Assembly: GCA_900110635.1 (NCBI GenBank)
Contig: FOEK01000004.1
Coordinates: 186,270 to 231,764 of the forward strand
From: Lachnospiraceae bacterium NE2001
GTDB lineage: Bacteria; Bacillota; Clostridia; Lachnospirales; Lachnospiraceae
DNA: 45,495 nt
Reading direction: 5' to 3'
Made by a program: the position numbers and the translations under genes. This document shows positions 8,454 to 39,858 of the stretch, one piece after another. Below the pieces are notes generated by a model. It was not told where the DNA came from. It searched no databases and saw only the letters and a list, made by a program, of their open reading frames with translations. The number at the start of each line of letters is the position of its first letter. The stretch's first letter is position 1.

Positions 8454-8467
8454 AGTAGTTCCCTAGA

Positions 8468-20162: not shown

Positions 20163-21263
20163 TTAGCAGATACGTGGAAGAAGCTCGCCGCTTGGTCGAG
20201 ACAGCATGGTCTTTGCGCCTACTGCGGTTTCAACCACAACCTTGCCTGGATTCTCCTCAGTGACTTCACCGATTATACAAGCGCCCTCTGAGTTAGGCTG
20301 TGCCTTAAGGGCTTCAACTATCTTGTCTGCCTCTGATGCAGGGGCAAATATCACAAGTCGTCCTTCACACGCAAGATAAAGCGGCTCCAGTCCCAGCATT
20401 CCGCAGACGCCCTTTACGCCGTCAGCAACTGGAATGCTTTCATAATCGAGAAGTATTCCCACATTACTTTCACCAGCTATCTCATACAGCACAGTTCCCA
20501 CGCCGCCACGGGTTGCATCCCTGATAACGTGAACGTCCTTAGTAACATTTAACATGGCCTCTATATTTTTATTCAACGGCGCACAATCGCTGGTAATATC
20601 CGCATCAATCTTGAAATCATTTCTTTCTAGCAAGATAGTACAGCCATGACGACCTATATCGCCTGTCACTATGATCTTATCCCCTGGCTTTGCAAATGCA
20701 CCTGATGTGGCCACACCTTCGAAGATATGGCCGAAGCCGGTGGTGGTTATGAATATCTTATCAACCTGTCCGCGACCTGCAACCTTGGTATCGCCAGCCA
20801 CCAGATAAACGCCCGCCTCACTGGCAGTCTTTGCCATTGCAGCAGCTATCTCATCGAGCTTTGCAACCGGGAAACCCTCCTCGATCACCATAGCACAGGT
20901 AAGATACTCTGGTTTTGCGCCCATGCAGGCAATGTCATTTACCGTGCCACAGATTGAAAGCTTGCCGATATTTCCACCTGGAAACTCGTAGGGTGACACA
21001 ATGAAGCCGTCTGTGGACATAGAAACCTTGTTGGTCAGCTTGAGAGAACTGCCCGCTGGACTTCCTGTTTCTGTTTGGGCTCCTGTCTCTGTTTGGGATT
21101 CTGTTTCTGTCTGAGCATCATTTTCAGCTGGTGACAGATCAAGAACTGCGGCATCGTCAGCTGTTAAATATGGATTATCAAAATGCTTTTTGAAAATGTT
21201 ATTTATCAGTTTATTTGTCTGAACTCCGCCAGAACCGTGAGCAAGTGTTATCTTTTCTTCCAT
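20163..21263 (-). CDS. hypE: HypE, carbamoyl dehydratase for cyanide ligand synthesis
   Basis: 366 residues of the AIR synthase/PurM-like family. HypE takes the carbamoyl group from HypF onto its C-terminal Cys and dehydrates it to a thiocyanate, the CN donor to the HypC-HypD complex. The essential C-terminal motif PRIC is intact. Family signatures are LAHGSGG at the start, MSTDGFIVSPYEFPGG, VNDIACMGA and VIRDATRGGVG. A species-specific insertion of QTET repeats lies at about residues 50-75 in a loop before the STDGF motif. It is the last gene of the hyp/nif-like run, 239 bp after hypD. AGGAGA lies 11 bp before the ATG. Confidence 0.95.
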   Translation of the reverse strand: MEEKITLAHGSGGVQTNKLINNIFKKHFDNPYLTADDAAVLDLSPAENDAQTETESQTETGAQTETGSPAGSSLKLTNKVSMSTDGFIVSPYEFPGGNIGKLSICGTVNDIACMGAKPEYLTCAMVIEEGFPVAKLDEIAAAMAKTASEAGVYLVAGDTKVAGRGQVDKIFITTTGFGHIFEGVATSGAFAKPGDKIIVTGDIGRHGCTILLERNDFKIDADITSDCAPLNKNIEAMLNVTKDVHVIRDATRGGVGTVLYEIAGESNVGILLDYESIPVADGVKGVCGMLGLEPLYLACEGRLVIFAPASEADKIVEALKAQPNSEGACIIGEVTEENPGKVVVETAVGAKTMLSRPSGELLPRIC

Positions 21264-21333
21264 TTTGTCTTTTATCTCCTATTTCTTTTTCCCCATTATT
21301 ATCGAAAGATTTCTATTTCTGAGGAACCATTCT

Positions 21334-21407
21334 TTTTTATCTATCGAAGAATTATTCTTTTTTATCAAGTTTTTTATCTATCGAAGAATTATTCTTTTTT
21401 ATCAAGT
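21334..21407. repeat. Perfect 37-bp tandem duplication between hypD and hypE
   Basis: Two adjacent identical 37-bp units (21334-21370 and 21371-21407), each containing ATCGAAGAATTATTC, followed by a partial third start. They lie in the 239-bp gap between hypD and hypE; no gene is present there. Confidence 0.9.
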
Positions 21408-21502
21408 TTTTTATCGAGGAACTCTCCCTTTCTTTCTATTGGGATACATATATTGCTCTTCGAATATAGCTTTCAAAGCAACTATGTGGCAAATATGCTT
21501 CT

Positions 21503-22561
21503 TCACAGCAGGTTTAAACTCGAACCGTAATGATAGTAGGCAGCACAGGCACCCTCGTCAGACACCATGCACGCACCAACCGGATGTATCGGATCACACA
21601 CCTTGCCAAAAAGTGGACAATCCGTTGGTTTACAGTTACCCTGAAGAACCTCTCCACACTGGCAGGCAGGATTCGGCTTACCCTGTATATCTGGCACCTC
21701 ATATTTCTTACGAGCATCAAAAAGAGCATATTCCTCTCTCAGCTTCATTCCAGACTTTTCAATCATTCCAAGACCGCGCCACTCAGTATCACAAGGCTCC
21801 ATTACACTTTCAACAAGCTTCTGTGCAGCCGGGTTTCCCTCGTCCTTCACAACTCTCGGATAACAGTTCACGAAGAAAGGCTCGCCCTTCTTGGATTCTT
21901 CTATAATTACAGCAAGCGCTGTCATCAGCTCACTGGCTGTGAAACCAGCAACAACTCCTGAGACACCCTGTCCCACCAGCTCCTTGCAAACACTGTTGCC
22001 TGCAATTGCATTTACGTGACCAGGGAAAAGAAATGCATCTGCACTTCCTGCCAGCTTTGCATAAGCACTTGGCATAGTCTTGTTGGCAGTTAGTATCGAA
22101 AAGTTACTAAGTCCAAGACGCTGAGCCTTCTTCACTGCAAGGCAGGATGATGGTGTTGTTGTCTCAAAACCGACAGAAAGGAACACAACCTGCATATCAG
22201 GATTCTCCTTTGCGAGCTCCACAGCGTCATCTGGAGAATATACAGGACGAACGTCAGCCCCCTCTGATCTTGCGCCAGCAAGTGACATTTTAGTTCCAGG
22301 CACCTTTATAAGATCGCCAAATGTAGTAATGACGCATCCCTTCTCGAGAGCAAGGTAAATTGCCTCATCGATAAAGCCAACTGGTGTCACGCAAACCGGA
22401 CAACCAGGACCAGATATCAAATCTATATTCTCCGGAAGCAGATTTCTGATTCCCATCTTGAATATCTCGTGAGTATGAGTTCCACAGACCTCCATAATTC
22501 TAAGCTTGGGGCCATTGTAGTTCTGTATTATCTCGCGAGCATTTTTTATCACTTCACTCAT
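21503..22561 (-). CDS. hypD: HypD, Fe(CN)2CO assembly scaffold
   Basis: 352 residues, normal for HypD. With HypC it holds the iron on which two CN and one CO ligand are built. Signature regions are present: MEVCGTHTHEIF (Cys near 25), SGPGCPVCVTP (Cys near 54 and 57), FLSVGFETTTP and FPGHVNAI. The C-terminal [4Fe-4S] cysteines are CQCG, GNCKPTDCPLFGKVCDP and GACMVS. The AGGAATG ribosome site precedes ATG 22561. It is 256 bp downstream of hypC, across an intergenic region carrying two 46-bp palindromic repeats. Confidence 0.96.
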   Translation of the reverse strand: MSEVIKNAREIIQNYNGPKLRIMEVCGTHTHEIFKMGIRNLLPENIDLISGPGCPVCVTPVGFIDEAIYLALEKGCVITTFGDLIKVPGTKMSLAGARSEGADVRPVYSPDDAVELAKENPDMQVVFLSVGFETTTPSSCLAVKKAQRLGLSNFSILTANKTMPSAYAKLAGSADAFLFPGHVNAIAGNSVCKELVGQGVSGVVAGFTASELMTALAVIIEESKKGEPFFVNCYPRVVKDEGNPAAQKLVESVMEPCDTEWRGLGMIEKSGMKLREEYALFDARKKYEVPDIQGKPNPACQCGEVLQGNCKPTDCPLFGKVCDPIHPVGACMVSDEGACAAYYHYGSSLNLL

Positions 22562-22703
22562 TTTTTCATTCCTTTTATACGTTTCTATAATCTTATATGT
22601 TTATTTGTTTATATGTTTATTTGTTTATCTGTTTATTTGAAAGACCTTTTTCTCTGGGCTTTTTTTAACGCTTTTTTCTAATACTTTTTTAGGTCCTTTT
22701 TTC

Positions 22704-22749
22704 CTGGTCCTTTCGATTTCTCAATTTTCGAGCATTTTGAAGGGACCAG
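22704..22749. repeat. 46-bp palindromic repeat, copy 1
   Basis: Begins CTGGTCC and ends GGGACCAG, so the termini are inverted repeats. It differs from copy 2 (22759-22804) at five positions. A 46-bp relative lies in frame in hydF (35798-35843). Confidence 0.85.
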
Positions 22750-22758
22750 AGATTTCAT

Positions 22759-22804
22759 CTGGTACCTTCGATTTCTCGATTTTCGGGCATATTGAAGGGA
22801 CCAG
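22759..22804. repeat. 46-bp palindromic repeat, copy 2
   Basis: Nine bases after copy 1 and in the same orientation, just before the stop of hypC. Stem-forming termini CTGGTACC/GGGACCAG with one mismatch. It could act as an mRNA 3' hairpin for hypC. Confidence 0.85.
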
Positions 22805-22817
22805 AGGTTTTTATATA

Positions 22818-23042
22818 TTATGCACGTGGATGGGAAGCAAGGCCAGCCATCACGCCCTCTGACTCTGTCTCATCGTCTGATGTGATCTTCGCAATCGCAA
22901 CTCCGGCGTGAACCATTACGTAATCCCCTGGCTCAAGATCCTCGAGAAGCTCAGCGCTTACATCTCTCTTTGCACCGCTGGCATCAATCACAGCTGTACC
23001 ATCCTTCACACTTACAACCTTAGCAGCAAGTCCTACACACAT
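22818..23042 (-). CDS. hypC: HypC, small chaperone for the Fe(CN)2CO unit
   Basis: 74 residues, OB-fold protein that partners HypD and delivers the iron unit to a hydrogenase precursor. The ATG is followed directly by the essential Cys2 (MCVGLAAKVV). The usual Pro of the MCLxxP motif is replaced by Ala, a minor deviation. AGGAGG lies eight bases upstream, so the start is secure. The rest (DYVMVHAGVAIAKI) matches the family core. It is 170 bp after hypF and 256 bp before hypD. Confidence 0.93.
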   Translation of the reverse strand: MCVGLAAKVVSVKDGTAVIDASGAKRDVSAELLEDLEPGDYVMVHAGVAIAKITSDDETESEGVMAGLASHPRA

Positions 23043-23212
23043 TATTATTTCCTCCTGATATCTTATCTATATTCTTCTTACTTATATATATCTTTTTTCG
23101 ATTATTTATAAATCGACTTTTTGATCCTTTATTAATCGTTTTTTCAACTCGTGAATGCCCAGTCTTTAGAGGGACAGATTCTAACCATAATTGGATTATA
23201 CCGATGATCGGA

Positions 23213-25783
23213 TCATACATGAGCAAGTCCGTAGAGAGCTTGTCCCACTGCTATGCCTCCATCATTTGGCGGAACCAGACTATGCAGCAATACCCTGAGT
23301 CCACTTTTCTTGAGTCTCTCACTTACGAAGAGAACAAGCAGTTTATTCTGGAACACCCCACCACTTAAAGCTATGGTTTTTATACCAGTCATCTCGCTAT
23401 ATCTCATCGCCTCATCAGATATCATTTCAGCAAGCTTCATATGGAATACCATAGCCAGCTCATCTGGATCAGCACCCTCAAGATAAGCAGCTGCTATCTC
23501 CCTTACCAAATGATTGGTGTCCTTGTACGAATCACGAATTATATAATTGGTCACAATATGTGCCAGCATATCGCCATAGCCAAACCGGCGCAGGAAACGC
23601 TGGGCTGCGTACATCAGCGCAGTTGCAGCTTCGCCTTCAAATGTGGACGAACGCCTGATACCAAGTATAGCGCTGACTGCATCAAAAAGCCTTCCGGCGC
23701 TGGTGGACAGAACACTGTTTATACCAGTGCGAGCCATATTCGATAACATTTTATATTCATTTTCTGAACAGAGGTCGAGGCGTCCCACCATATCCGAGTA
23801 ATCTGTTTGGTTTAAGCCTGCGAAATCGCCAAGAATTGACGCCGCGATCCGCCACCCCTCCTTCGATGAGAGGTCGCCTCCACATTGAATAAACGGAGCT
23901 ATGTGGCCCAGTCTCTCAAAACCTTCCAGGCTGCATCTGAGATACTCGCCGCCCCAGATGGTACCATCCGTTCCATAACCTGTACCGTCAAATGAAACTC
24001 CGATCACCTCGTCAAGGTAATCATTTTCCGCCATACAGGAAAGTATGTGGGCATAGTGATGCTGAATCTGCAGCAGGGGCACATCATTTCTTTCAGCATA
24101 ATCTTCTGCTACAGAAGTAGTATTATACTTCGGATGAAGGTCCGCGACAACTATTTCCGGTTTTGCCTCAAGAAGGGTCTGCATCCTGTCCACAGATTCT
24201 TCCAAGGCCTGAACGGTTCTTATATCAGCCATATCACCCACGTAGGCGCTTGGATATAGCAGGCTGTTCTTTGCTATGCAAAATGTATTCTTAAGTTCGC
24301 CACCGATTCCTAGCACTGATTTTATGCAGGCTTCCTTATCTGTTGATCTATGTATATCTACCGCTATGGTATCATCTATTGTTTTTGATGGAATATGATT
24401 ATCATCATCAATTATTGATTGGAAATGTTTTGCATCGTCCATACGAGTTAGTAGTGATTCGCTACTAACCATAATAGGAAGTGGCGCGTAGCCCCTGGAA
24501 CGACGGATCATATATGGCTTCCCATCCAGGATATCCATAACCGTGTCATCCGCTCTTGTACGGATAGTTCTGTTATTTGATAAAACCAGATCTGTAAAAC
24601 CGGATATTTCCTTTATTGCATCCTCATCAGTTCGACAGATTGGAGCACCAGATGCATTTGCACTGGTCATCACAAGAGCTTCCGAGACATTTAATTCATC
24701 CTCATAATCAAAAAGGAGAAGATGTATTGGCGTATAAGGAAGCATCACGCCGATGCTCAGGTTATCCGGAGAAACCGATTCTGCAACCCTTGTTTCCTCG
24801 CGCTTATCAAGTAAAACTATCGGTTTCTCATGGCCGTTCAAAAGCTCGGTAAAATATGATTCCCCCTCTGGAAGCCTGCACTCCTTTCGGACGGTTTCAA
24901 GATCCTTCATCATCACTGCGAAAGGCTTCATAGGGCGATTTTTGAGAGTTCTTAGACGTGTAACCGCATCTTCATTTGTTGCATCACAACATAGATGGAA
25001 ACCACCAATACCTTTTATTGCAACAATACGTCCTTCGCAGATAGCCTGCCGCGCAGCAGTAATTGCTGTATTACCAACTATTATATTTCTATCCAAAGTC
25101 TGAGCAGAGTCCTTGTTGCTTTCTAAACTATGATCAGTGTTCTTATTGCTTTCTAAAATCTGATCAACGCTCCTGTTGTAGGATGAAAGACTCTTCTCTA
25201 TATCACTAAAGGTATGCTTCTTGGGATCAAATGCATAAACCACCGGACCGCAGTTTGGACAGCAAACCGGCTGGGCATCGTAACGTCTGGTCTCAGGGTG
25301 GGTATATTCATACTCACACTCCGGGCACATTTCAAACTCCTTCATACTCGTACGTTCGCGGTCATACGGCATGGATTCCAAGATTGTCAACCTGGGGCCG
25401 CAGTTAGTGCAGTTGATAAAGGGATGCATATACCTGCGATTGTTCTTATCAAAAAGCTCCGCCTTGCACTCGTCGCAAATAGCTATGTCTGGTGACACAA
25501 AGATATCGCCTGTGTCGCGTTCGCTCTCAATTATCTCAAAGTTTTCAAACTCAGGGAGATCTATCTCCTTATCGATCACGTTAAGGATCACCGACCTGGC
25601 TGGCGGATTGTGCTTCAACCCTTGCATAAGCGGCTCAACATCCCCCTGTGCAAATATTTCAACGTAGGAACCCTTGTTAGCAACAGTTCCCTTTATATCA
25701 TTTTCAAGACACGTCCTGCTGACGAAAGGTCTGAAGCCCACGCCCTGAACTATGCCGTATACTCTTATCTTGTGTGTAATCAC
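23213..25783 (-). CDS. hypF: HypF, carbamoyltransferase for hydrogenase cyanide ligands
   Basis: 856 residues from GTG 25783, which follows AAGGAGG by about eight bases. A longer frame from 25828 would translate a REP element (VPIAHERERRG) and is rejected. Domains in order: acylphosphatase (about 1-90, VYGIVQGVGFRPFV), two zinc-finger pairs (CDEC/CTNC and CPEC/CPNC, about 105-180), YrdC-like domain (about 240-430) and Kae1-like carbamoyltransferase (about 480-856, HHYAH, SFDGTGYGTDG, ALSGGVFQN). It makes carbamoyl-AMP from carbamoyl phosphate and transfers the group to HypE. Two species-specific polar insertions lie after the zinc fingers (with an ESNK repeat) and between the YrdC and Kae1 parts. 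Confidence 0.96.
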   Translation of the reverse strand: MITHKIRVYGIVQGVGFRPFVSRTCLENDIKGTVANKGSYVEIFAQGDVEPLMQGLKHNPPARSVILNVIDKEIDLPEFENFEIIESERDTGDIFVSPDIAICDECKAELFDKNNRRYMHPFINCTNCGPRLTILESMPYDRERTSMKEFEMCPECEYEYTHPETRRYDAQPVCCPNCGPVVYAFDPKKHTFSDIEKSLSSYNRSVDQILESNKNTDHSLESNKDSAQTLDRNIIVGNTAITAARQAICEGRIVAIKGIGGFHLCCDATNEDAVTRLRTLKNRPMKPFAVMMKDLETVRKECRLPEGESYFTELLNGHEKPIVLLDKREETRVAESVSPDNLSIGVMLPYTPIHLLLFDYEDELNVSEALVMTSANASGAPICRTDEDAIKEISGFTDLVLSNNRTIRTRADDTVMDILDGKPYMIRRSRGYAPLPIMVSSESLLTRMDDAKHFQSIIDDDNHIPSKTIDDTIAVDIHRSTDKEACIKSVLGIGGELKNTFCIAKNSLLYPSAYVGDMADIRTVQALEESVDRMQTLLEAKPEIVVADLHPKYNTTSVAEDYAERNDVPLLQIQHHYAHILSCMAENDYLDEVIGVSFDGTGYGTDGTIWGGEYLRCSLEGFERLGHIAPFIQCGGDLSSKEGWRIAASILGDFAGLNQTDYSDMVGRLDLCSENEYKMLSNMARTGINSVLSTSAGRLFDAVSAILGIRRSSTFEGEAATALMYAAQRFLRRFGYGDMLAHIVTNYIIRDSYKDTNHLVREIAAAYLEGADPDELAMVFHMKLAEMISDEAMRYSEMTGIKTIALSGGVFQNKLLVLFVSERLKKSGLRVLLHSLVPPNDGGIAVGQALYGLAHV

Positions 25784-25804
25784 GTGGCCCCTCCTTTCTC
25801 TTTC

Positions 25805-25858
25805 ATGTGCAATGGGGACTGTCCCCACTCACACATAGGTCCGTCCCTTTTTGCACAT
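25805..25858. repeat. REP-A palindromic element between nifK-like 2 and hypF
   Basis: Starts ATGTGCAATGGGGAC and ends TTTTTGCACAT; inverted arms around a middle with a second GGTCCGTCCC segment. It directly abuts the stop of the second nifK-like gene and ends about 20 bp before the hypF start. Confidence 0.85.
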
Positions 25859-27054: not shown

Positions 27055-27078
27055 GTTTATTCTTCCATCTTATAAAAA

Positions 27079-27107
27079 GTTGTCAGTTGTTACGCTCCCG
27101 TGACAAC
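27079..27107. repeat. Repeat C, copy at the 3' end of nifD-like 2
   Basis: 29-bp element starting GTTGTCAG and ending CCCGTGACAAC, with inverted termini. It overlaps the stop codon and the last seven codons (LSRERNN) of the nifD-like gene of set 2. Two tandem relatives lie at 37891-37948. Confidence 0.85.
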
Positions 27108-28417
27108 ATCTCGTCAAGGCGTTCGAAGAGTTTGATTACGGCGTCGTATCCAAATGGCTGGTTGTCGTCGCACCACTCCACTGCAGGTTTATCTGGGTGA
27201 TAGTACATAGCGTCGGAGCCAATACATATATCAATCTTATCTTTATCGGATGTTTCATCGTTCAGACTCTTAGAGTGTTCTGTTCCAAAATCCATCATTG
27301 TCGGTGAAAGGTTGGAATAAACCTTTGTATCCGGACTGAGCTGGGCCAGACGTTTCAGGAATCGGAAATTGAGTTCACCCACCGTGGCGAAGATCTCACT
27401 CACCTTAAAGCCTTCCTCAACCAGCATCAGCGAAAGCTCGATAGGATCTGCATTTGTAATCTCTCCAACCGAGAAGGTAAGGGCGCCATATTTTGCCCTG
27501 AAATCATCTATAGTTTTCCTTGCATTCTGGTAGTACACTGAGTCATCAAGCTTTGCCCCCAGTGCATCTCCCAGAGATTTGTATTGGTTATGAATCTTGT
27601 CAATCCTGTAAAGCCGAAGGAGCTCGATAAATGGTATTCCCAGTCGTTCCTGCATATTTTGCGCAGCCGCACGAGCTTCAGGGTTAAGAACAAGATTGAA
27701 GTTCGCCTTTGACATTTCACTATAATCATCAAATGTCTCGCATCTGGAAAGCTCCCGGATGTTTTTCACGCCAAGGGATCTCATCAGCAGATAGATCTCC
27801 GAGGAATCAAAAAGCGGAGTGAAATATCCCATAATGTTTATATCCGCGGAGTTCCTCTTCTCCTGCTTCTCCAGGAGGGAATACACACTGGTTCTGACCG
27901 CGGCCATAGGCGGAAGGCGCATCTCACGAGTGAGGGCATACATATAGCAGGCAACCGCTGGCACTCCAGTCTTTTCAGTCACCTTGCGGCAAACCCGCTC
28001 CATATCCGTGCCCAGCAAAGCATCGACGCAAGTGATGCAGATCATAATCGCTGAAGGCTTCTTCTTCAGAACTTCAAGAAGTTCCTCAGCAGCCTGTGGG
28101 ATCTTGGTCAAATGACGGCCTGTTACGATATCTGTGTCATCCAGCAGCTGAAAGAAAAACTTATCTTTATACTCAGGCGCTGTTCTGAAAAGCGAGGTGT
28201 TTCGGCCACAGCAGCCTGGTGAAACAAGCAGCATCACAGACTCCGGCACGGCAAGTCCCGCCCTTTTTACTCCGAAACCCTTAGCGCCAGGCGAATTAAA
28301 ATACAAGGTTGCTGGCGAGCTGTAGATAAGGTGATCTGAAGATTTCATTTCACCTGGAAGCCCCGAAAGGCCAAGCTCCGCCAATTCTTTAGTTGTCTTA
28401 CAAAACGGTTTATTCAT
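27083..28417 (-). CDS. NifD-like nitrogenase component 1 protein (set 2)
   Basis: 444 residues, nitrogenase component 1 superfamily. The position of the first NifD cluster Cys appears to be Asn/Ser (NSPGAKGF). The second is present as Cys69-Cys70 (SPGCCGRN) and the third as Cys130 (CVDALLGTD, matching the NifD CxxxxxGxD pattern). The FeMo-cofactor Cys position falls in NPEARAAAQ and the cofactor His position in NQPFGYDAV (Phe), so both ligands look absent. This protein therefore resembles a reductase half rather than a dinitrogenase. It is 84 bp after nifH-like 2 and 28 bp before nifK-like 2. The last residues come from repeat C. Confidence 0.83.
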   Translation of the reverse strand: MNKPFCKTTKELAELGLSGLPGEMKSSDHLIYSSPATLYFNSPGAKGFGVKRAGLAVPESVMLLVSPGCCGRNTSLFRTAPEYKDKFFFQLLDDTDIVTGRHLTKIPQAAEELLEVLKKKPSAIMICITCVDALLGTDMERVCRKVTEKTGVPAVACYMYALTREMRLPPMAAVRTSVYSLLEKQEKRNSADINIMGYFTPLFDSSEIYLLMRSLGVKNIRELSRCETFDDYSEMSKANFNLVLNPEARAAAQNMQERLGIPFIELLRLYRIDKIHNQYKSLGDALGAKLDDSVYYQNARKTIDDFRAKYGALTFSVGEITNADPIELSLMLVEEGFKVSEIFATVGELNFRFLKRLAQLSPDTKVYSNLSPTMMDFGTEHSKSLNDETSDKDKIDICIGSDAMYYHPDKPAVEWCDDNQPFGYDAVIKLFERLDEMLSRERNN

Positions 28418-28449
28418 CTATTTTTCCATCTATCATTCATTATCGTAAA

Positions 28450-28502
28450 ATGTGCAAAAGGGGACAGACCTATGTGCAATGGGGTCTGTCCCCATTGCAC
28501 AT
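28450..28502. repeat. REP-A element, 53-bp exact copy 1
   Basis: Starts ATGTGCAAAAGGGGACAG and ends CCATTGCACAT; identical in all 53 bases to 39793-39845. It touches the stop codon of nifH-like 2. Confidence 0.92.
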
Positions 28503-29257
28503 TATTGGTCTTCGTCGATGAGGAGCTGGGCCAGAGCCAGGAAGCGTTTGCTTACTTCCAGGGTTGGGTCGCCTTCGATGACTGTCTTGCCCATATCCTC
28601 GTAGTGGATTATATCGTTGGTTCGTGGGATGTCTGCCACGATGTCAAGACCGGCAGACTCAGCGAAGGCGCGTACCTTCTCTTCTTCTCCCTCAACTGCA
28701 CGGCGATTCATTACAATACCACGAACCTTTGCGTAGCTTCTATCCTCAAAGTTCTTCACTGCAGTATTTATGTTATTGGCAGCGTAAAGTGCCATCTTCT
28801 CGCCAGAGGTTACTATCAGCACCTTGTCAGCATATCCTTCTCTGATCGGAGCAGCGAATCCGCCGCAGACTACATCGCCCAGGACGTCATAAAGAACAGC
28901 ATCAGGCTGATATTTTTTGTAAAGCTCCAGCTCTTCTAATAGGGAAAATGTAGTGATTATGCCTCGTCCTGCGCAGCCAAGTCCAGGTGTTGGGCCGCCT
29001 GTTTCGATACACACGACTCCACCGAAGCCTTCCTTTGTGATTTCATCAAGGGACGTTGGTTCCTCGCCAGTATCGCGCATATAATTCATAACCGGAGTTA
29101 CTGGCTCACCATTCAGCAGATTTGCTGTGGAGTCAGCCTTCGGATCACACCCTATCTGAATTACCTTTTTTCCAAGTGTAGCAAGGGCTGCGGAGAGGTT
29201 GGAGGTCACTGTGGACTTTCCAATCCCGCCTTTGCCATAAACTGCAATCTTTATCAT
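28502..29257 (-). CDS. NifH-like ATP-dependent iron-sulfur reductase (set 2)
   Basis: 251 residues, NifH/BchL/CfbC family. P-loop GKGGIGKS at 8-15, switch I CDPKADST, cluster ligands Cys95 (GLGCAGRG) and Cys131 (GDVVCGGF, in the switch II DVLGD region). The Arg of CAGRG, the ADP-ribosylation site in true NifH, is kept. As a homodimer bridged by one [4Fe-4S] it should pass electrons to the NifD/K-like pair that follows with ATP hydrolysis. It lacks the C-terminal extension of nitrogenase NifH, as do short maturation-type relatives. GAGGAAAG ribosome site. It is about 60% identical by eye to set 1. Confidence 0.92.
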
Positions 29258-29305
29258 ATCTTTCCTCTTCTATCTGTTATATTTATGTCCAGCACGATTA
29301 TCATT

Positions 29306-29890: not shown

Positions 29891-29907
29891 ATTCACTCCA
29901 TACGATT

Positions 29908-31140: not shown

Positions 31141-31149
31141 ATTTTCACC

Positions 31150-32628
31150 CTATAAACAGCTGGCACAGCCAATTCCCTTGTGGCTGATGAGCTTCTTTGT
31201 ATCCTTTGGTGTGTTAAATGCTTCTACTAACGCCTCTGCCATTCGGCATATACCATCCAGCCCATACATTCCACCGCCATCCGCAATGTTGACGAAGTAT
31301 GGTGTATGTGTGAAGTAGGCAGCCTTCTGACCGATGGCAAGATGCTCAACCGTCTGGCTGGATGCCTTTCTCTTTTCATCAAATGGCGCCTGGCCCGATG
31401 ATTCCCCTTCATACTCGTTGTCAGCAAATCTCATAGCCGGATCCATTGTTGGATATATCTTCATTTCCGGACAAAGCTTAAGCAGTTCATCGTAAGCCGC
31501 ACGCTCCTCCTTCTGGAAGATATCCGTGTAGATGGTTGTAACATTGAAACCATACTTAGTAAGAAGCAGCGCAAGCCCCAGCGGACGAGGGGTAGCTGAG
31601 TAATCGATTACGATCGGTGTATCCTGTATCAGTGCCTGAGCCTCTTTCAGTGCCGTTTCAGCCAGCTTCTTTTTCTCCTTGATATATTCCGCCACCTTTG
31701 ACCTTATTTCTTCAGATGCTATCTTTTCTACATATTCTTCGTTTATTCTGTTATCTTTGCTTTCTTTATTTTCTATGTTTTCCTCATCTGCTCCCAGAAG
31801 AAATCCGACTAACTTCCAGACATTTTCCTCGCACTCGTCAAAATCATAGCTGATAGGCAGATAGCTCCACTCAGCTCCTATCTTGGCACTGAGCTTCCTA
31901 ACTCCCACATTTGCTACGGGCAGATATGAAATGAGTCTCGAAGCACTCCCTAGCGAGAGATACTCGTCGTAGCTCTGGCAGGAATTGATCTCCCATATCT
32001 CCTGCCCAGCCATCCGGGCTATCTCAAATATATCCGACGTTCTGTCAGTCTCCCTGTCACAGCCAACAAGCCCCACAAGCTTCTCGTTCTTTGGAAGAGG
32101 CTCAATCGGTGCATAGAGACTGGCCTTCATCATCGCATCCGGCGAGATAGACTTTCTCATAGTCGGTGTCATATAACAGTCCACAAATGTGGTTCCTGGA
32201 AACCTCTCCGACAGCTCGTCGGCAATCACTCTGAAATCACAGCCTTCGAACATATGCATACAGCTAAGGTACACCAGTACGCACCTTGGGCGGTTTTCCA
32301 TCTTTTCTACAATATGGGCGACACCCTCGACTACCCTCGATTCCATTTCACCATTCCACATATCCTTCTCGCGAAGAGACACCCAGGACATGCGGTCCAT
32401 CAGGTTCATCTCGGCCGCGGTAAGGATTACGCCGCGAAGGCAGCCCTGAGCACAGACGTAGACCTGATGTGCCTCAGGAATCAGCATTCCGGTGTGGACG
32501 ATGTTCCACACGCCACGTGCCGGCGGATTGTACTGGAGACCCTCGTAAAATGGGCAGTCAAAATCTATATCCCGCAGAAGCACCGGCTCTGGTATTCTAT
32601 TTTTTTTAGTTCTTAAAGCTTCCAGCAT
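31150..32628 (-). CDS. NifD-like nitrogenase component 1 protein (set 1)
   Basis: 492 residues. Cluster-type cysteines: Cys25 (DCPFYEGL), Cys59/Cys63 (VYVCAQGCLRG) and Cys123 with Cys130 (SCMHMFEGCD). All three NifD P-cluster positions are therefore occupied, unlike set 2. The FeMo-cofactor Cys position falls in PVANVGVRK and the His position in GGGMYGLDG (Met), so those ligands look absent. A charged insertion (about 270-320) and an unusual C-terminus ending GCASCL (two cysteines within the last five residues) are extra. GGAG precedes ATG 32628. It sits 89 bp after nifH-like 1 and 9 bp before nifK-like 1. Confidence 0.87.
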   Translation of the reverse strand: MLEALRTKKNRIPEPVLLRDIDFDCPFYEGLQYNPPARGVWNIVHTGMLIPEAHQVYVCAQGCLRGVILTAAEMNLMDRMSWVSLREKDMWNGEMESRVVEGVAHIVEKMENRPRCVLVYLSCMHMFEGCDFRVIADELSERFPGTTFVDCYMTPTMRKSISPDAMMKASLYAPIEPLPKNEKLVGLVGCDRETDRTSDIFEIARMAGQEIWEINSCQSYDEYLSLGSASRLISYLPVANVGVRKLSAKIGAEWSYLPISYDFDECEENVWKLVGFLLGADEENIENKESKDNRINEEYVEKIASEEIRSKVAEYIKEKKKLAETALKEAQALIQDTPIVIDYSATPRPLGLALLLTKYGFNVTTIYTDIFQKEERAAYDELLKLCPEMKIYPTMDPAMRFADNEYEGESSGQAPFDEKRKASSQTVEHLAIGQKAAYFTHTPYFVNIADGGGMYGLDGICRMAEALVEAFNTPKDTKKLISHKGIGCASCL

Positions 32629-32671
32629 ATCTACTCCATAAGTATATCATTCTAATTTATCAGGCCTCTCA

Positions 32672-32703
32672 ATGTGCTATTAGGGACAGTCCCGACTGCA
32701 CAT
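32672..32703. repeat. Degenerate REP-A element
   Basis: ATGTGCTATTAGGGACAG...GACTGCACAT: the same termini as other REP-A copies with a shortened middle (32 bp). It lies between nifH-like 1 and nifD-like 1. Confidence 0.7.
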
Positions 32704-32717
32704 TCATCTGATGTATC

Positions 32718-33458
32718 TTACTGAGAAACCCTGTCAGCCAGCGCCAGCAGCTTTGCAGCCACATCGCTGTCTGGGAATAGCTCGATAACCGTCTTTCCAG
32801 CCGCCTCAGCCTTTTCAAAGAGAGGACTCCTTGGAATAACTGTGAGGACTTCTGTGTCAAAGTCCTTCGCAAGAGTCTCGGCATTTTCGACCTCATTTTC
32901 CACGCCTCGGCAATTGAGGATGATGCCTCCTAATCTAGCGTAATCACGTTTCTTAAAATTCTCCACCGCCATAGCGATATTGGCCGCAGCGTAGATGGCC
33001 ATCTTCTCACCCGAGGTCACAATGTAAACCTTGTCGGCGTATCCCTTACGCATTGGCATAGTGAAGCCGCCACAAACCACGTCGCCCAGCACGTCGTAGA
33101 TCACAACGTCAGGCTTATATACCTCGTAGGCGCCTTTTTGCTCCAGGGACTCCAGGGCGTTGATGATACCTCGGCCTGCGCAGCCAAGTCCTGGAACTGG
33201 TCCACCAGCCTCAACGCAGAGAACCCCTGCTGTGCTCTCCTTCACCATATCCTGCAGATCAAATGGTTTCCCACTCCTTACAAGATCCAGCACGGTTGTT
33301 ATCTTTTCCTTCGGGCAAAGAAGGGATGTGGAGTCCGCCTTGGGATCGCAGCCAATCTGCATTACTGTGAGGCCCCGCCTCGCAAGCGCCGCAGAAAGAT
33401 TCGATGACAACGTGGATTTACCTATTCCGCCTTTACCATATATTGCAAACTTGATCAT
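32718..33458 (-). CDS. NifH-like ATP-dependent iron-sulfur reductase (set 1)
   Basis: 246 residues, NifH/BchL/CfbC family. P-loop GKGGIGKS at 8-15, CDPKADST switch, Cys93 (GLGCAGRG) and Cys129 (GDVVCGGF) for the bridging [4Fe-4S]. Extra Cys48 and Cys81. Like set 2 it lacks the nitrogenase C-terminal extension. AAAGGAAT ribosome site. It follows the ACT-domain regulator by 36 bp and precedes nifD-like 1. Expected role: ATP-gated electron donor to the D1/K1 pair, possibly also to the second pair. Confidence 0.92.
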
Positions 33459-33472
33459 ATCTTTATTCCTTT

Positions 33473-33519
33473 CAAGACAGGGGACGGTTCTATATTATTC
33501 TGGGGAGTAAACTGTCTTG
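33473..33519. repeat. Diverged REP-B element over the 3' end of the ACT gene
   Basis: CAAGACAGGGGACGGTTC (33473-33490) followed by an imperfect second arm CTGTCTTGG (33511-33519). The ACT-domain gene's stop (33495-33497) and last codons lie between the arms. Confidence 0.6.
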
Positions 33520-33740
33520 GTAGTTACTCCTTCAATTCGACCGATCTTACCAGCAAGGGTATTGATAATATCCTGCTCTGCATCAATGGCGATGCTGATG
33601 ATGCTGATATTCTTCTTCTGGTAGGGAATACCCATTCGGCCGATTATGTACTTGCCATACTCGTGAAGCACGTTATTAATCTCATTTGCCGACTCAGTAT
33701 TCTTAACTATAATTGCGATTACCGCTGCTCTTGTATCCAT
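33495..33740 (-). CDS. TM1266-type ACT-domain iron-only hydrogenase system regulator
   Basis: 81 residues forming one ACT-like alpha/beta domain: strand AAVIAIIVKN, a helix, GKYIIGRMGIPYQKKNISIISIAIDA, and a final strand GVTTKTVYS. The GRMGxPY motif is typical of the small regulator family found next to [FeFe]-hydrogenase and HydEFG genes. AAGGAA lies upstream of ATG 33740. It sits 127 bp after hydE, across a REP cluster, and 36 bp before nifH-like 1. It supports the view that the HydEF genes and the nif-like genes form one regulated unit. Its ligand is unknown. Confidence 0.85.
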   Translation of the reverse strand: MDTRAAVIAIIVKNTESANEINNVLHEYGKYIIGRMGIPYQKKNISIISIAIDAEQDIINTLAGKIGRIEGVTTKTVYSPE

Positions 33741-33826
33741 AAATCATTTCCTTCTCATTTAATTCTTCTATATTCGCCCCGTACCAATCATCTCACGACG
33801 CAACCAAACTTAACATTTATTCAAAA

Positions 33827-33900
33827 ATGTGCAATTGGGGACGGACCTATGTGCAATGGGGACGGACCTATGTGCAATGGGGACGGACCCCATTGCACAT
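33827..33900. repeat. REP-A cluster with three head-to-tail units
   Basis: ATGTGCAATTGGGGACGG, then two ATGTGCAATGGGGACGG units at 21-22 bp period, closed by the inverted arm CCATTGCACAT. Its distal part encodes the last 10-11 residues of HydE. Confidence 0.92.
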
Positions 33901-34950
33901 TTTGTAGTCGCCGCGGGTGATGGCAACTTTGTAGCCGATGGATTCCATTCGGCGTTCTATGCAGCCTCGACACTCGTTGGAGGTGTCGCCTGTACATATC
34001 TTGTTGTCGTAAAGCATATATTTATCGCGCACCGTCAGGGGTGAGAGATTTGGCATTATAACATTTGCACCTGCAAGTATTCCCTGCTCGCGGCCATTTG
34101 GCCTGATCGTTCCCAGAGCCGTTGTGGCTGGGATAAGTGCATTTGGAAGCATCAATCGGCACAGGCTTATCAGGAATAGGGTCATTTCATAGGAACCCTT
34201 GTCTTTATCTCTGAATGGTGTATCTGAATGTGGTAAAAATGGACCAAGGCCTATCATTTCCGGCTTAAACTCCTGCATAAACATCATATCGTCCACCAGG
34301 CATTCCACCGTCTGCTCGGGCGAGCCGATCATTACGCCGCACCCTGTCTGGTAACCCAGTGATTTCAGGTCTTTCAGGCAGCGCATACGATTGGACCAGG
34401 ACATATTTTCTGGATGAAGCTTTCCGTAATGCTCTTCATTTGCAGTCTCGTGACGCAGCAGATATCTGTCCGCTCCTGCCTCACGATATGCCTTATACTG
34501 CTCGTAGGACTTTTCTCCTATTGAAAGTGTCACGGCACATTCAGGGTAATCCTTCTTAAGTCGTCTGACCAGGTCGCATATCACATCATCAGTATAATAA
34601 GGATCCTCACCGCTCTGGAGAACGAAGGTTCTAAAGCCATATTTATAGCCGTCCTCACAGCAGGCCAGGATATCCTCTTCTGTCAGACGATAACGGGTGA
34701 GCTTCGAATTGCCCGCGCGGAGTCCACAGTAGTAACAGTTTTTGTTGCAAATGTTACTGAACTCCACTATGCCTCGAATGAAAACCTCTTTGCCGTATAC
34801 CTGGTCGGCAACCGCCCGCGCCTTTGAAGCCGCGTACTTCAGCAGCTCTTCATCTTCTCCTGCTCCATCTAGCAGAATCATCCACTCCTCACGGGAGAGC
34901 TCATTTGTCTCAGCCAGTTTATCTATTAAAATGTACTTCTCATTATTCAA
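33868..34950 (-). CDS. hydE: HydE, radical SAM maturase of [FeFe]-hydrogenase type
   Basis: 360 residues from a TTG start at 34950, with GGAG ten bases upstream; no suitable ATG is near. Radical SAM motif Cys68-x3-Cys72-x2-Cys75 (CNKNCYYC) with the SAM/GGE-like region LQSGED. A second-cluster motif CX7CX2C (ICTGDTSNECRGC) is present near 325. HydE acts on the HydG-made Fe(CO)2(CN)cysteine complex on the way to the 2Fe subcluster. The native end seems to be ITRGDYK; the remaining MCNGVRPHCT is encoded by the REP-A cluster. It is 48 bp after hydF. No hydG is present in the window. Confidence 0.94.
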   Translation of the reverse strand: MNNEKYILIDKLAETNELSREEWMILLDGAGEDEELLKYAASKARAVADQVYGKEVFIRGIVEFSNICNKNCYYCGLRAGNSKLTRYRLTEEDILACCEDGYKYGFRTFVLQSGEDPYYTDDVICDLVRRLKKDYPECAVTLSIGEKSYEQYKAYREAGADRYLLRHETANEEHYGKLHPENMSWSNRMRCLKDLKSLGYQTGCGVMIGSPEQTVECLVDDMMFMQEFKPEMIGLGPFLPHSDTPFRDKDKGSYEMTLFLISLCRLMLPNALIPATTALGTIRPNGREQGILAGANVIMPNLSPLTVRDKYMLYDNKICTGDTSNECRGCIERRMESIGYKVAITRGDYKMCNGVRPHCT

Positions 34951-34967
34951 TCTATACTACTCCTATA

Positions 34968-35027
34968 TCAAGACAGGGGACGGTTCTCTGTCTTTTTTTC
35001 AAGACAGAGAACCGTCCCCTGTCTTGA
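34968..35027. repeat. REP-B perfect 27-bp inverted repeat
   Basis: Left arm 34968-34994 (TCAAGACAGGGGACGG...), 6-base loop, right arm 35001-35027, perfectly complementary over 27 bp. The stop codon of hydF (34999-35001) lies in the loop. The right arm supplies its last codons (KTGDGSLS). Confidence 0.95.
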
Positions 35028-36303
35028 AGATTGGTGAAATGGTACGGTCGAGAATGCCTTTCATAAAAGCAATGGCGATGCCGTAGTTAGTAAATGGTAT
35101 GCCAGCATCCTCGGCGCATTTCATACGGTAAATCATTTCGCGGTAGCTAAGCATACAGCCGCCGCAATGTATTATCAGTTTGTAGTCTTCAAGGTTCTCC
35201 GGAAAATCAGCACCTGAGGAAGTCTCGATCACAAGACTCTTTTGCGTACGCTGAGCCAGCCAGTTTGGAAGCTTCACCGTGCCTATATCGCCGCACTGTC
35301 TGTGATGGGTACAGCCCTCGCTGATCAGCACCCTGTCTCCATCCTGCAGACTATCAATTGCTCCAGCACCCTTAACAGCTGTATCCAGGAAGCCCTTGTA
35401 TCTTGCCATCAGTATCGAAAATGAAGTAAGTGCCACATCCTGAGGAACTATCTTATTTACCTTCTCAAAAACCTGACTATCAGTGATCACAAGGTCTGGC
35501 TTCTGGCCTGCATTTGACATTCTTTCAAGAAGTTCGGCCAGCTCAGTTTCTCTGGTTGTGATGGCAAATGCACCTGTATCCAGTATGTCTCGAATAGCCT
35601 GCTGCTGCGGAAGAATGAGTCTTCCCTTAGGTGCAGCTTTATCGATTGGGATTACGAGAACGATGGTCTGGCCTGGTTCTATAATATCGCCAACCAATTT
35701 CAGCCCGTTATCTCCAGAAGGAACTATGTGGCCGATCATCTCCTTCAGTTCCTGTATACCGGTCTTCTCTGTAGCACTCACAAATATGGTATTAGTCCTG
35801 GTCCCTTCGATTTCATCGTTTTTGCCAATTTCGAGAGGACCAGCCTCAGGAGCACCAGCAGCCTCCTCTTTTTTTTCAGTTGCTTGAGATCCAGTCCCAA
35901 GAGAATCCAGTAAATCAGATTTATTCTTTGCTATGATAAATGGTATCGACTTCTCCTCAAAGATCCGAAGAAGTTCTTCTTCTGACACATCCATTTCACG
36001 GGTTGCATCAGTCACAAGAATCGCAATGTCCGTCTTGTTCAGTATCTGCTTAGTGCGCTTAACGCGAAGCTCGCCCAAAGTTCCTGAATCGTCGAAGCCC
36101 GGAGTATCTGTGATCAGAACCGGCCCCAGCGGAAGCAGCTCCATCGCTTTCGAAACAGGATCAGTCGTGGTCCCAAGGGTATCTGAAACCACTGCCAGCT
36201 GTTGGTTTGTTACTGCATTTACCAGGCTGGACTTGCCTGCATTTCGCTTTCCAAAGAAGCTTATTCTTAGACGCTCGCCTGAAGGTGTATCATTTAAACT
36301 CAT
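34999..36303 (-). CDS. hydF: HydF, GTPase scaffold for the 2Fe subcluster
   Basis: 434 residues. N-terminal GTPase: P-loop GKRNAGKSS at about 14-22, DTPGFDD, NKSDLLD. The dimerisation and cluster-binding domains follow, with the HydF signature CTHH...(about 330) and HCGGC near 392 (CxH and HCxxC ligands). The C-terminus GIAIAFMKGILDRTI is typical, then a REP-encoded tail KTGDGSLS. A 46-bp palindromic repeat sits in frame at 35798-35843 and encodes GPLEIGKNDEIEGT in a low-complexity loop (about 138-165) of the G domain. AGGAGA ribosome site. It is the first gene of the 14-gene run. Confidence 0.95.
   Translation of the reverse strand: MSLNDTPSGERLRISFFGKRNAGKSSLVNAVTNQQLAVVSDTLGTTTDPVSKAMELLPLGPVLITDTPGFDDSGTLGELRVKRTKQILNKTDIAILVTDATREMDVSEEELLRIFEEKSIPFIIAKNKSDLLDSLGTGSQATEKKEEAAGAPEAGPLEIGKNDEIEGTRTNTIFVSATEKTGIQELKEMIGHIVPSGDNGLKLVGDIIEPGQTIVLVIPIDKAAPKGRLILPQQQAIRDILDTGAFAITTRETELAELLERMSNAGQKPDLVITDSQVFEKVNKIVPQDVALTSFSILMARYKGFLDTAVKGAGAIDSLQDGDRVLISEGCTHHRQCGDIGTVKLPNWLAQRTQKSLVIETSSGADFPENLEDYKLIIHCGGCMLSYREMIYRMKCAEDAGIPFTNYGIAIAFMKGILDRTISPIFKTGDGSLS
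35798..35843. repeat. 46-bp palindromic repeat, in-frame copy inside hydF
   Basis: Exactly 46 bp, with the same CTGGTCC start, CTTCGATTTC stretch and GGACCAG end as the two intergenic copies at 22704-22804. Because 46 is not a multiple of three, neighbouring bases must have compensated to keep the reading frame. Confidence 0.85.
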
Positions 36304-39616: not shown

Positions 39617-39792
39617 AACCTTTACCTTCCTTTCTATTTTCTGAGGCAAATCACTTGCTTCCCTCTTTTAAACATTCTATATGTTTTCAAGTGATCTCTG
39701 TTTGTTATGTGCACATCTTAACAAACCAACCTTACCATAAAAATCTCTCTTCCTTAACCTTATCTTAACAAAACTGCCCCACATTCTTAACA

Positions 39793-39845
39793 ATGTGCAA
39801 AAGGGGACAGACCTATGTGCAATGGGGTCTGTCCCCATTGCACAT
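39793..39845. repeat. REP-A element, 53-bp exact copy 2
   Basis: Identical to 28450-28502 over 53 bp. It lies 13 bp beyond the stop of the calcium ATPase gene on the minus strand. Confidence 0.92.
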
Positions 39846-39858
39846 GGCCAATTGCATA

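What the first reader, a model, noticed from the sequence alone, without database searches (positions are those of the whole stretch)
20163..36303. Hybrid HydEF / double nifHDK-like / HypCDEF gene run: a candidate new metallocofactor system
Seen: 14 co-oriented genes in the order hydF, hydE, TM1266-type ACT regulator, nifH1, nifD1, nifK1, membrane protein, nifH2, nifD2, nifK2, hypF, hypC, hypD, hypE. Known: HydE/HydF build the 2Fe unit of [FeFe]-hydrogenase, HypCDEF build Fe(CN)2CO of [NiFe]-hydrogenase, and NifH/D/K relatives are ATP-driven reductases (BchLNB, CfbCD, NifHDK, Mar). Inference: the three modules act together, either to make an iron-CN/CO cofactor by a new route or to run a nitrogenase-like enzyme whose cofactor carries CN/CO ligands. 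I do not recognise a described pathway with this content.
Basis: partly seen in the sequence, partly recalled or inferred. Interest (0 to 1): 0.92.

Follow-up and report, generated by a model that had tools for sequence, protein, structure and literature searches.

The report
Nitrogenase-like substitute for hydrogenase maturase HydG
Some gut and rumen bacteria appear to build the active-site metal cofactor of their hydrogen-producing enzyme without the usual carbon monoxide and cyanide maker, using instead a gene block that combines nitrogenase-like proteins with parts borrowed from a different hydrogenase's assembly line.

Summary
The 14-gene run is real and conserved. Profile scans confirm HydF, HydE, a TM1266-like regulator, two NifH/NifD/NifK-like sets, one unassigned gene, and HypF/C/D/E. 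A scan of species genomes matched 229 loci; the 80 kept are all consistent with one gene order, including two Ruminococcus albus strains.

The key fact is outside the window: HydG, which normally makes the CO and CN ligands of [FeFe]-hydrogenase, is missing. In the genus, 32 of 61 genomes have HydF: 22 have this cassette, 10 HydG, none both. In the R. albus family, 106 of 197 have HydF: 85 HydG, 14 nitrogenase-like genes, 7 neither, none both. HydG is in 0 of 50 cassette genomes from the scan. No [NiFe]-hydrogenase large subunit was found in 23 cassette genomes of the genus. In one relative the hydrogenase genes hydCBA directly follow hypE.

Best explanation: the cassette replaces HydG, feeding HydE and HydF. 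Replacement is well supported; the chemistry (HypEF making CN, nitrogenase-like reductases supplying CO or electrons) is inferred. A shorter form lacks set 2 and hyp genes nearby and has an iron-type importer.

The parts
34999..36303 (-). hydF, H-cluster scaffold GTPase; its three conserved Cys (331, 380, 383) are kept
   Evidence: TIGR03918, 540 bits over cut-off 326
33868..34950 (-). hydE, radical SAM maturase with its CxxxCxxC
   Evidence: TIGR03956, 556 bits over cut-off 255
33495..33740 (-). TM1266-type (ACT-like) 'iron-only hydrogenase system regulator'; in most relatives that show it, it stands upstream of hydF
   Evidence: PF21699, 107.9 bits
32718..33458 (-). nifH-like Fe protein 1 (H1), conserved Cys kept
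   Evidence: PF00142
31150..32628 (-). nifD-like D1; C59, C63, C123, C151 and a C-terminal CxxC conserved in 73 rows that include 6 of the shorter variant
   Evidence: PF00148, 41.7 bits
29908..31140 (-). nifK-like K1; C19, C37, H32, H44, H376 conserved
   Evidence: PF00148, 104.5 bits
29306..29896 (-). membrane protein of unknown family, found only in some relatives; probably accessory
   Evidence: no match over cut-off
28502..29257 (-). nifH-like Fe protein 2 (H2), the least diverged of the 11 proteins compared
27083..28417 (-). nifD-like D2; C69, C70, C127, C130 invariant; Asn245 aligns with the cofactor-Cys column of a solved nitrogenase alpha chain
   Evidence: PF00148, 103 bits
25858..27054 (-). 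nifK-like K2; C32, C37, C42 conserved
   Evidence: PF00148, 63.9 bits
23213..25828 (-). hypF, carbamoyltransferase
   Evidence: TIGR00143, 720 bits over cut-off 466
22818..23042 (-). hypC, N-terminal MC and His45 kept in the 54 rows aligned
   Evidence: TIGR00074, 58 bits over cut-off 48
21503..22561 (-). hypD, C26, C54, C57 kept; the only hypD match of the genome
   Evidence: TIGR00075, 404 bits over cut-off 193
20163..21263 (-). hypE, C-terminal Cys366 kept in the 52 rows aligned
   Evidence: TIGR02124, 408 bits over cut-off 252

Best explanation
The run is a HydG-independent maturation cassette for [FeFe]-hydrogenase. In the known pathway HydG makes CO and CN from tyrosine and hands HydE an Fe(CN)(CO)2(cysteine) unit; HydE turns it into the [2Fe] precursor and HydF carries it to HydA. 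Here HydE and HydF are kept and HydG is replaced. Shown by sequence data: HydG is missing, HydG and the cassette exclude each other among HydF-bearing genomes, no [NiFe]-hydrogenase large subunit was found for HypCDEF to serve in cassette genomes of the genus, the key Cys of HypCDEF, HydE and HydF are conserved, and the block keeps its order across groups. Inferred: HypF/HypE make cyanide from carbamoyl phosphate; HypC/HypD hold the Fe that receives it; the ATP-driven H2-D2-K2 set (next to hypCDEF) and H1-D1-K1 set (next to hydE) do the low-potential step(s) that give a CO-rich Fe unit, most simply reduction of CO2 to CO and/or reductive remodelling of Fe(CN)x(CO)y, and pass it to HydE. The order of steps and the split between sets 1 and 2 are guesses.
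For: HydG: the own genome has none over cut-off (best profile hit, 178 bits, is a ThiH-like gene in a thiamine cluster). Genus, 61 genomes: HydF over cut-off in 32, of which 22 cassette, 10 HydG, 0 both, 0 neither (Fisher p 1.6e-8). R. albus family, 197 genomes: HydF in 106 (one just under cut-off), of which 85 HydG (2 as fragments), 14 nif-like at 74 bits or more, 7 neither, 0 both (p 1.1e-12). These p-values ignore kinship; over all genomes, HydF or not, p is 0.029 in the genus and 2.5e-4 in the family. HydG is in 0 of 50 cassette genomes from the D2 scan (50 of 80 chosen for long contigs; some are also in the two sets above). HypD: 22 of 23 cassette genomes (G063 only a fragment under cut-off) against 2 of 38 others, and those 2 are the only genomes with a [NiFe] large-subunit match. 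HydE from the two backgrounds intermix in one tree. The own genome has hydC-hydB-hydA with intact H-cluster motifs; in G068 hydC-hydB-hydA (82, 91, 96% identical) start 176 bases after hypE. Reviews describe H2 formation by R. albus through [FeFe]-hydrogenase HydABC (PMC6288185, PMC8924675; passages), and two R. albus strains carry the cassette and lack HydG. A review calls the anaerobic CO source unresolved and notes that CO2 reduction would need ATP (PMC12134894, passages), which fits a NifH-driven reductase.
Against: No biochemistry was available. Genus genomes with no HydF or HydG over cut-off and no cassette still carry HydA; 16 were shown with intact H-cluster Cys motifs, so HydA alone does not prove maturation. 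One genome, G004, has both HydG and the cassette; its HydG is on a 3128-base contig, and its best match among 21 HydG compared is from the R. albus family (84%; the 7 from the genus 72-80%), so contamination is likely but not proven. HypCD normally builds Fe(CN)2CO, not Fe(CN)(CO)2. Added CO2 was ruled out as direct source of the [NiFe] CO ligand in R. eutropha (PMC12134894, passage), which speaks against the CO2 version. The shorter variant shows no hyp genes beside it, so its CN source is unexplained. Seven of 106 HydF genomes have neither HydG nor a counted nif-like set. Seven more family genomes have weak D2-profile matches (51 bits or less) that I did not count; four of these (G182, G189, G221, G307) have HydG, and the two loci I looked at, G182 and G225, show other kinds of nif-like set. 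9 of 46 loci with enough upstream DNA lack hydE nearby. hydC-B-A beside the cassette was seen in 1 genome only, of 144 loci scanned. HydA was not searched in the R. albus genomes, and the type strain R. albus 7 was not identified among those searched.
Confidence: 0.8

Rival explanations
1. The cassette builds a CN/CO-bearing iron cofactor for the nitrogenase-like proteins themselves, and HydE/HydF serve that enzyme rather than the hydrogenase.
For: Four conserved component-1 proteins in two sets, and HypCDEF without a [NiFe]-hydrogenase large subunit. Some cassette MAGs of the genus have no HydA match (G021, G022, G077) or only a fragment (G026, G080), though these are 69-88% complete.
Against: It does not explain why HydG and the cassette exclude each other among HydF genomes, why HydE of both backgrounds intermix, or why hydCBA follow the cassette in G068. 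D1, K1 and D2 align a non-Cys residue with the cofactor-Cys column of solved nitrogenase or NifE chains. R. albus is described as using [FeFe]-hydrogenase.
Confidence: 0.08
2. The nif-like genes are unrelated tetrapyrrole, coenzyme or metallophore reductases that merely sit beside two maturation operons.
For: NifH-D-K-like genes with an iron-type ABC importer and no Hyd/Hyp genes nearby occur in Treponema saccharophilum; the shorter variant also has a FecCD importer.
Against: Order consistent in 80 of 80 loci; exclusion with HydG. CfbC, BchL and BchX cut-offs not met.
Confidence: 0.06
3. HydG has simply been lost; HydE and HydF work at low yield on environmental CO and CN, and the nif-like and hyp genes do something else.
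For: HydE plus HydF without HydG gave about 1% activation in vitro, doubled by free CO or CN (PMC9431212, passages). Seven HydF genomes lack both.
Against: Only 7 of 106 HydF genomes of the R. albus family and 0 of 32 of the genus show this; it does not explain the cassette in the other HydG-less genomes; R. albus is described as making H2 as a main product.
Confidence: 0.04
4. The block is a misassembly or contamination artefact.
For: The window's genome has 62 contigs and 3.23% contamination; some relatives are fragmentary MAGs.
Against: The same order is on single contigs of named strains, such as R. albus KH2T6 and AR67, Ruminococcus FC2018 and Lachnospiraceae AC2031, the last on one contig of 3.19 Mb.
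Confidence: 0.01

Closest known systems
HydE-HydF-HydG maturation of [FeFe]-hydrogenase
   Same: HydE and HydF over equivalog cut-offs with conserved cluster Cys, TM1266-type regulator, [FeFe]-hydrogenase HydABC in the genome
   Different: No HydG; its place is taken by NifH/D/K-like proteins and HypCDEF
HypCDEF, the Fe(CN)2CO machinery of [NiFe]-hydrogenase
   Same: All four proteins over cut-off, key Cys conserved
   Different: No [NiFe] large subunit match in any of 23 cassette genomes of the genus; no hypA/hypB among the genes of the run; the likely client is HydE
Nitrogenase and NifEN
   Same: Fe protein plus two-subunit component 1; AlphaFold models of D1 and D2 match nitrogenase and NifEN chains (TM by query length 0.51-0.67 in the listed rows)
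   Different: Below nif equivalog cut-offs; identity 11-18% over the listed structural matches; cofactor-Cys column not Cys in D1, D2, K1
Nitrogenase-like reductases: BchLNB, CfbCD and methylthio-alkane reductase
   Same: ATP-driven Fe protein with a heteromeric component 1 (recalled)
   Different: Cut-offs for BchL, BchX, CfbC and BchB not met; the gene neighbours are hydrogenase maturases
NifHDK-like plus FecBCD importer clusters (Treponema saccharophilum plasmid pTS1, and the shorter variant here)
   Same: H-D-K set; in the shorter variant also hydE, hydF and the TM1266 domain, which is fused to the importer ATPase in L218
   Different: The shorter variant has neither H2-D2-K2 nor hypCDEF beside it; the Treponema stretch has no Hyd genes annotated

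Membership tests
HydEFG [FeFe]-hydrogenase maturation | HydE and HydF present | tested here: met
   both over cut-off
HydEFG [FeFe]-hydrogenase maturation | HydG present | tested here: not met
   absent from the own genome, from 22 of 23 cassette genomes of the genus set (G004 excepted) and from 50 of 50 cassette genomes of the D2 scan
HydEFG [FeFe]-hydrogenase maturation | client [FeFe]-hydrogenase with H-cluster motifs | tested here: met
   (own genome and genus); not tested in the R. albus genomes
[NiFe]-hydrogenase maturation (Hyp) | HypC, D, E, F with catalytic residues | tested here: met
[NiFe]-hydrogenase maturation (Hyp) | client [NiFe]-hydrogenase large subunit | tested here: not met
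   0 of 23 cassette genomes; partial matches only in G071 and G032, which have no cassette
[NiFe]-hydrogenase maturation (Hyp) | HypA and HypB nickel insertion | not tested
   none among the 14 genes of the run; no genome-wide search made
Nitrogenase | NifH/D/K over equivalog cut-offs | tested here: not met
   nifH 306 and 309 bits against 394; D and K far below
Nitrogenase | Cys ligand of the catalytic cofactor in component 1 | tested here: not met
   the aligned column is Asn in D2, Leu in D1, Ser or Ala in K1 (profile alignments; the role of that Cys is recalled); K2 not examined
Nitrogenase | nifB in the genome | not tested
   no search made
CfbCD (coenzyme F430) | CfbC and CfbD over cut-off | tested here: not met
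   CfbC 305 and 291 bits against 402; CfbD model at best 23.6 bits against 268
DPOR/COR (BchLNB, BchXYZ) | BchL, BchX, BchB over cut-off | tested here: not met
Methylthio-alkane reductase | sequence membership | tested here: inconclusive
   only remote profile and fold similarity to 9fmg and 9d9u; no family cut-off available

The most novel reading that the evidence does not exclude
The two nitrogenase-like complexes are ATP-driven enzymes that make the CO ligand (CO2 to CO) and shape an Fe(CN)(CO)2 unit on a HypCD scaffold, so that H-cluster assembly proceeds without tyrosine and without HydG. That would be a categorically new organometallic pathway, a first nitrogenase-family carbonyl-ligand synthase, and a candidate answer to the open question of the anaerobic CO source. 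The shorter variant would replace the Hyp half by importing an iron compound.
Probability: 0.35. Interest if true: 0.97.

Novelty: new variant of a known kind. Interest (0 to 1): 0.9.

Why it matters
[FeFe]-hydrogenase maturation is described as needing HydE, HydF and HydG (PMC12752695, passages). A branch of rumen and gut bacteria, including strains of R. albus, a well-known H2 producer, seems to do without HydG, using parts that link three iron-metalloenzyme assembly lines (nitrogenase, [NiFe]- and [FeFe]-hydrogenase). The source of CO in anaerobic [NiFe] cofactor assembly is called the most pressing open question of that field (PMC12134894, passages); these gene sets give a short list of enzymes in which to look for an answer in a related pathway. 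It also bears on rumen hydrogen and methane formation and on heterologous production of hydrogenases.

Tried and rejected
Considered and rejected: nitrogen fixation (below nif cut-offs, no cofactor Cys in D1, D2, K1); F430 or chlorophyll-type reductases (below cut-offs); HypCDEF for a [NiFe]-hydrogenase (no large subunit match in cassette genomes of the genus); a HydG hidden elsewhere in the own genome (the 178-bit hit is ThiH-like, beside thiG- and thiE-like genes, names by recall).

Led nowhere or of little use: viral-contig scan with D1, no relative; Rfam scan of the window, 0 matches; promoter and terminator scan found more sites than shuffles (42 against 28.4; 20 against 12.5) but did not define transcripts; genes lying between hydF and hydE in G001, G068 and G022 look unrelated by eye only; plasmid search found a distant Treponema set and otherwise mostly rhizobial nifE in the rows listed (20 of 188 records). 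The correlation of divergence among 11 cassette proteins, 0.61-0.93 over 25 loci, had no control gene from outside the block, so shared species history may explain it; I do not count it as evidence for function. Literature searches listed no title or abstract describing this cassette; preprints and most subscription papers are not held, so this is no proof that it is unpublished. Zheng et al. 2014 on R. albus 7 is not held; I rely on passages of two reviews that cite it.

Fisher p-values treat genomes as independent; kinship inflates them. The HydE tree needs 4 changes of the cassette label (1 forced by well-supported branches) and 5 of the HydG label (2 forced), and three HydG-background HydE rows form a distant clade of their own; the number of independent switches is uncertain. 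The limit of 74 bits for counting nif-like D matches in the R. albus family was set after seeing the list (next value 51 bits); the six matches between 74 and 122 bits were then each confirmed as D1-like by comparison of the loci.
Full report
OBSERVATION. Profile scans give HydF, HydE, HypF, HypD and HypE over their equivalog cut-offs and HypC over its subfamily cut-off. The 81-residue gene is TM1266-like, and the two NifH-like and four component-1-like genes match the broad Pfam families; no NCBIfam nitrogenase, protochlorophyllide reductase or CfbCD cut-off is reached. The protein between K1 and H2 has no family and is optional.

CONSERVATION. A search of species genomes with the D2 alignment matched 229 loci, of which the best 80 were kept. 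By record title they come from Lachnospiraceae, Eubacterium, Ruminococcus including two R. albus strains, other Clostridia, Lentisphaerae and one short contig of a Synergistaceae MAG. In all 80 the genes present follow the order H1-D1-K1-H2-D2-K2-HypF-HypC-HypD-HypE; 44 show all ten, the others being cut by contig ends or flank length. Of 46 loci with at least 9 kb upstream of D2, 37 carry hydE; of 50 with more than 8 kb downstream, 50 carry hypD and 47 hypE. In the 9 loci with enough upstream DNA and no hydE, hydE may lie elsewhere: all 50 cassette genomes searched with the HydG profile gave weak matches, most in frames of about 350 residues that fit HydE; this was not checked further.

HydG IS MISSING. 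The own genome's best HydG-profile match scores 178 bits (cut-off 312) and is ThiH-like, beside thiG- and thiE-like genes (gene names by recall). In the genus set of 61 genomes, HydG passes the cut-off in 11, the nif-like D family is found in 23 (G016 through D2 only) and HydF passes in 32; G010 has a HydF fragment under cut-off and neither of the others. Each of the 32 HydF genomes has exactly one of the two: 22 the cassette, 10 HydG. The single genome with both, G004, is 58% complete in about 310 contigs, has no HydF over cut-off, and holds its HydG on a 3128-base contig; that HydG is 84% identical to one from the R. albus family, its best match among 21 compared, and 72-80% to the seven of the genus, so I take it as a likely contaminant. 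In 197 genomes of the R. albus family, HydF is found in 106 (105 over cut-off): 85 with HydG (two as fragments), 14 with nif-like D proteins, 7 with neither, none with both; two more genomes have HydG without HydF. The 14 are those at 74 bits or more; seven further genomes match at 51 bits or less, four of them with HydG, and the loci of two (G182, G225) show other kinds of nif-like gene set. HydG passes the cut-off in 0 of 50 cassette genomes of the D2 scan, chosen out of 80 for long contigs and partly the same genomes as in the two sets. Fisher tests among HydF genomes give 1.6e-8 and 1.1e-12 but ignore kinship; over all genomes the values are 0.029 in the genus and 2.5e-4 in the family.

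HypCDEF WITHOUT [NiFe]-HYDROGENASE. HypD is in 22 of 23 cassette genomes of the genus (in G063 only a fragment under cut-off; not found in the 73% complete G022) and in 2 of the 38 others, G071 and G032; these two are the only genomes of the 61 with a [NiFe] large-subunit match, over the first 69 profile positions. In cassette genomes the Hyp proteins therefore have no visible usual client, while key residues are kept: HypE C-terminal Cys (52 rows), HypC Cys2 (54 rows), HypD C26, C54 and C57 (62 rows), each in every row with a letter there.

THE CLIENT. [FeFe]-hydrogenase genes (PF02906) are found in 57 of 61 genus genomes and in all 31 of at least 90% completeness and at most 5% contamination. 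The own HydA is the third gene of a hydC-hydB-hydA unit with the usual domains and has intact H-cluster motifs. In G068 a hydC-hydB-hydA unit (82, 91 and 96% identical) begins 176 bases after hypE; this was the only such case in 144 loci scanned, many of which are cut short downstream. Reviews describe R. albus as making H2 with an electron-confurcating [FeFe]-hydrogenase HydABC (PMC6288185, passages) and name a putative sensory RaHydS (PMC8924675, passages). I did not search HydA in the R. albus genomes. HydE proteins from cassette and HydG genomes intermix in one tree, apart from three distant HydG-background rows, which fits an unchanged HydE substrate.

A SECOND FORM. The six R. albus-family genomes with D matches of 74-122 bits show H1-D1-K1 sets (D1 38-41% identical in five, 33% in one) without H2-D2-K2 or hyp genes nearby. 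Besides H1-D1-K1, hydE is seen in L216, L218 and L221, hydF in L216, L218 and L219 (on another contig in G164 and G288), a TM1266-like domain in L216, L218, L220 and L221, and a FecCD permease in L218, L220 and L221 by profile; the sixth, L217, is a 3.3-kb contig with the set alone. In L218 the importer's ATPase is fused to a TM1266-like domain. None of the six has HydG over cut-off. In G308, hydF-hydE-D1 stand together with no nifH between, and H2-D2-K2 lie on another contig, which suggests that one Fe protein can serve both sets. Set 1 thus seems tied to HydE, and set 2 more to the Hyp genes.

STRUCTURE. AlphaFold models of D1 (mean pLDDT 87.8) and D2 (86.6) match nitrogenase and NifEN chains at 11-18% identity. 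Conserved Cys suggest an iron-sulfur cluster at the subunit interface (inference), but D1, K1 and D2 place Leu, Ser/Ala and Asn in the column of the nitrogenase cofactor Cys (the meaning of that column is recalled). They are therefore likely reductases of the family without a FeMo-type cofactor ligand.

MECHANISM. Known pathway (PMC12752695, passages): HydG cleaves tyrosine, gives an Fe(II)(CN)(CO)2(cysteine) synthon directly to HydE, HydE makes the dinuclear precursor, HydF finishes and delivers it. Proposed here (inference): HypF and HypE make CN from carbamoyl phosphate, HypCD holds the iron, and the NifH-driven sets supply the low-potential electrons to form CO or to change Fe(CN)x(CO)y to the CO-rich form that HydE needs. 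The 2025 review of [NiFe] cofactor assembly calls the anaerobic CO source unresolved and notes that CO2 reduction at -530 mV would need ATP; it also reports that added CO2 was ruled out as direct CO source in R. eutropha (PMC12134894, passages). Against the proposal: Fe(CN)2CO, the known HypCD product, has the wrong ligand ratio, and the shorter variant has no hyp genes beside it.

WHAT STAYS UNEXPLAINED. Genus genomes with no HydF or HydG over cut-off and no cassette keep HydA; 16 were shown to have the H-cluster Cys motifs, six of them a subgroup at 56-58% identity that ends the third motif in Ser rather than Pro. Seven HydF genomes of the R. albus family have neither HydG nor a counted nif-like set, and none shows one within the stretch fetched around hydF. 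Both show that maturation is less uniform than the standard scheme.

VERDICT. The replacement of HydG by this cassette is strongly supported by presence and absence in two groups; the chemistry is open. I file it as a new variant of [FeFe]-hydrogenase maturation. My ten literature searches listed no description of it, but the library excludes preprints and most subscription journals.

Noticed in passing
28474-28500, 33872-33898, 39817-39843: Three copies of a 27-base palindrome (GTGCAATGGGG-5-CCCCATTGCAC): one in the H2-D2 gap, one inside the last codons of hydE, one in the gap at 39650-39858; 0 found in 100 shuffles. Possibly a mobile repeat or a regulatory hairpin.
   Followed up: partly
genus genomes G003, G009, G013, G017, G028, G036 and others; loci L050-L079, L124-L126: [FeFe]-hydrogenase HydA genes with intact H-cluster Cys motifs in 16 genomes with no HydF or HydG over cut-off and no cassette. 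How or whether they are matured is unclear.
   Followed up: partly
L216, L218, L219, L220, L221: Shorter variant: H1-D1-K1 with hydE and/or hydF, TM1266 and a FecCD-type importer in varying combinations, no hyp genes nearby; in L218 the importer ATPase is fused to a TM1266-like domain.
   Followed up: partly
L133:12481-16638: In G068 the hydrogenase genes hydC-hydB-hydA directly follow the cassette's hypE.
   Followed up: yes
L248:7920-10111: In G176 (R. albus family) hydF follows a 331-residue gene only 28% identical to HydE, with no HydG and no nif-like set found: perhaps a third maturation form.
   Followed up: no
L257 (Treponema saccharophilum plasmid pTS1): NifH plus two component-1 genes with an iron-type ABC importer on a plasmid, without Hyd or Hyp genes annotated in the stretch.
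   Followed up: no
6873-10069: Two adjacent SpoIIE-phosphatase proteins of similar length (526 and 533 residues) downstream of the run, near several two-component systems and a type IV coupling-protein gene at 3899-5926.
   Followed up: no
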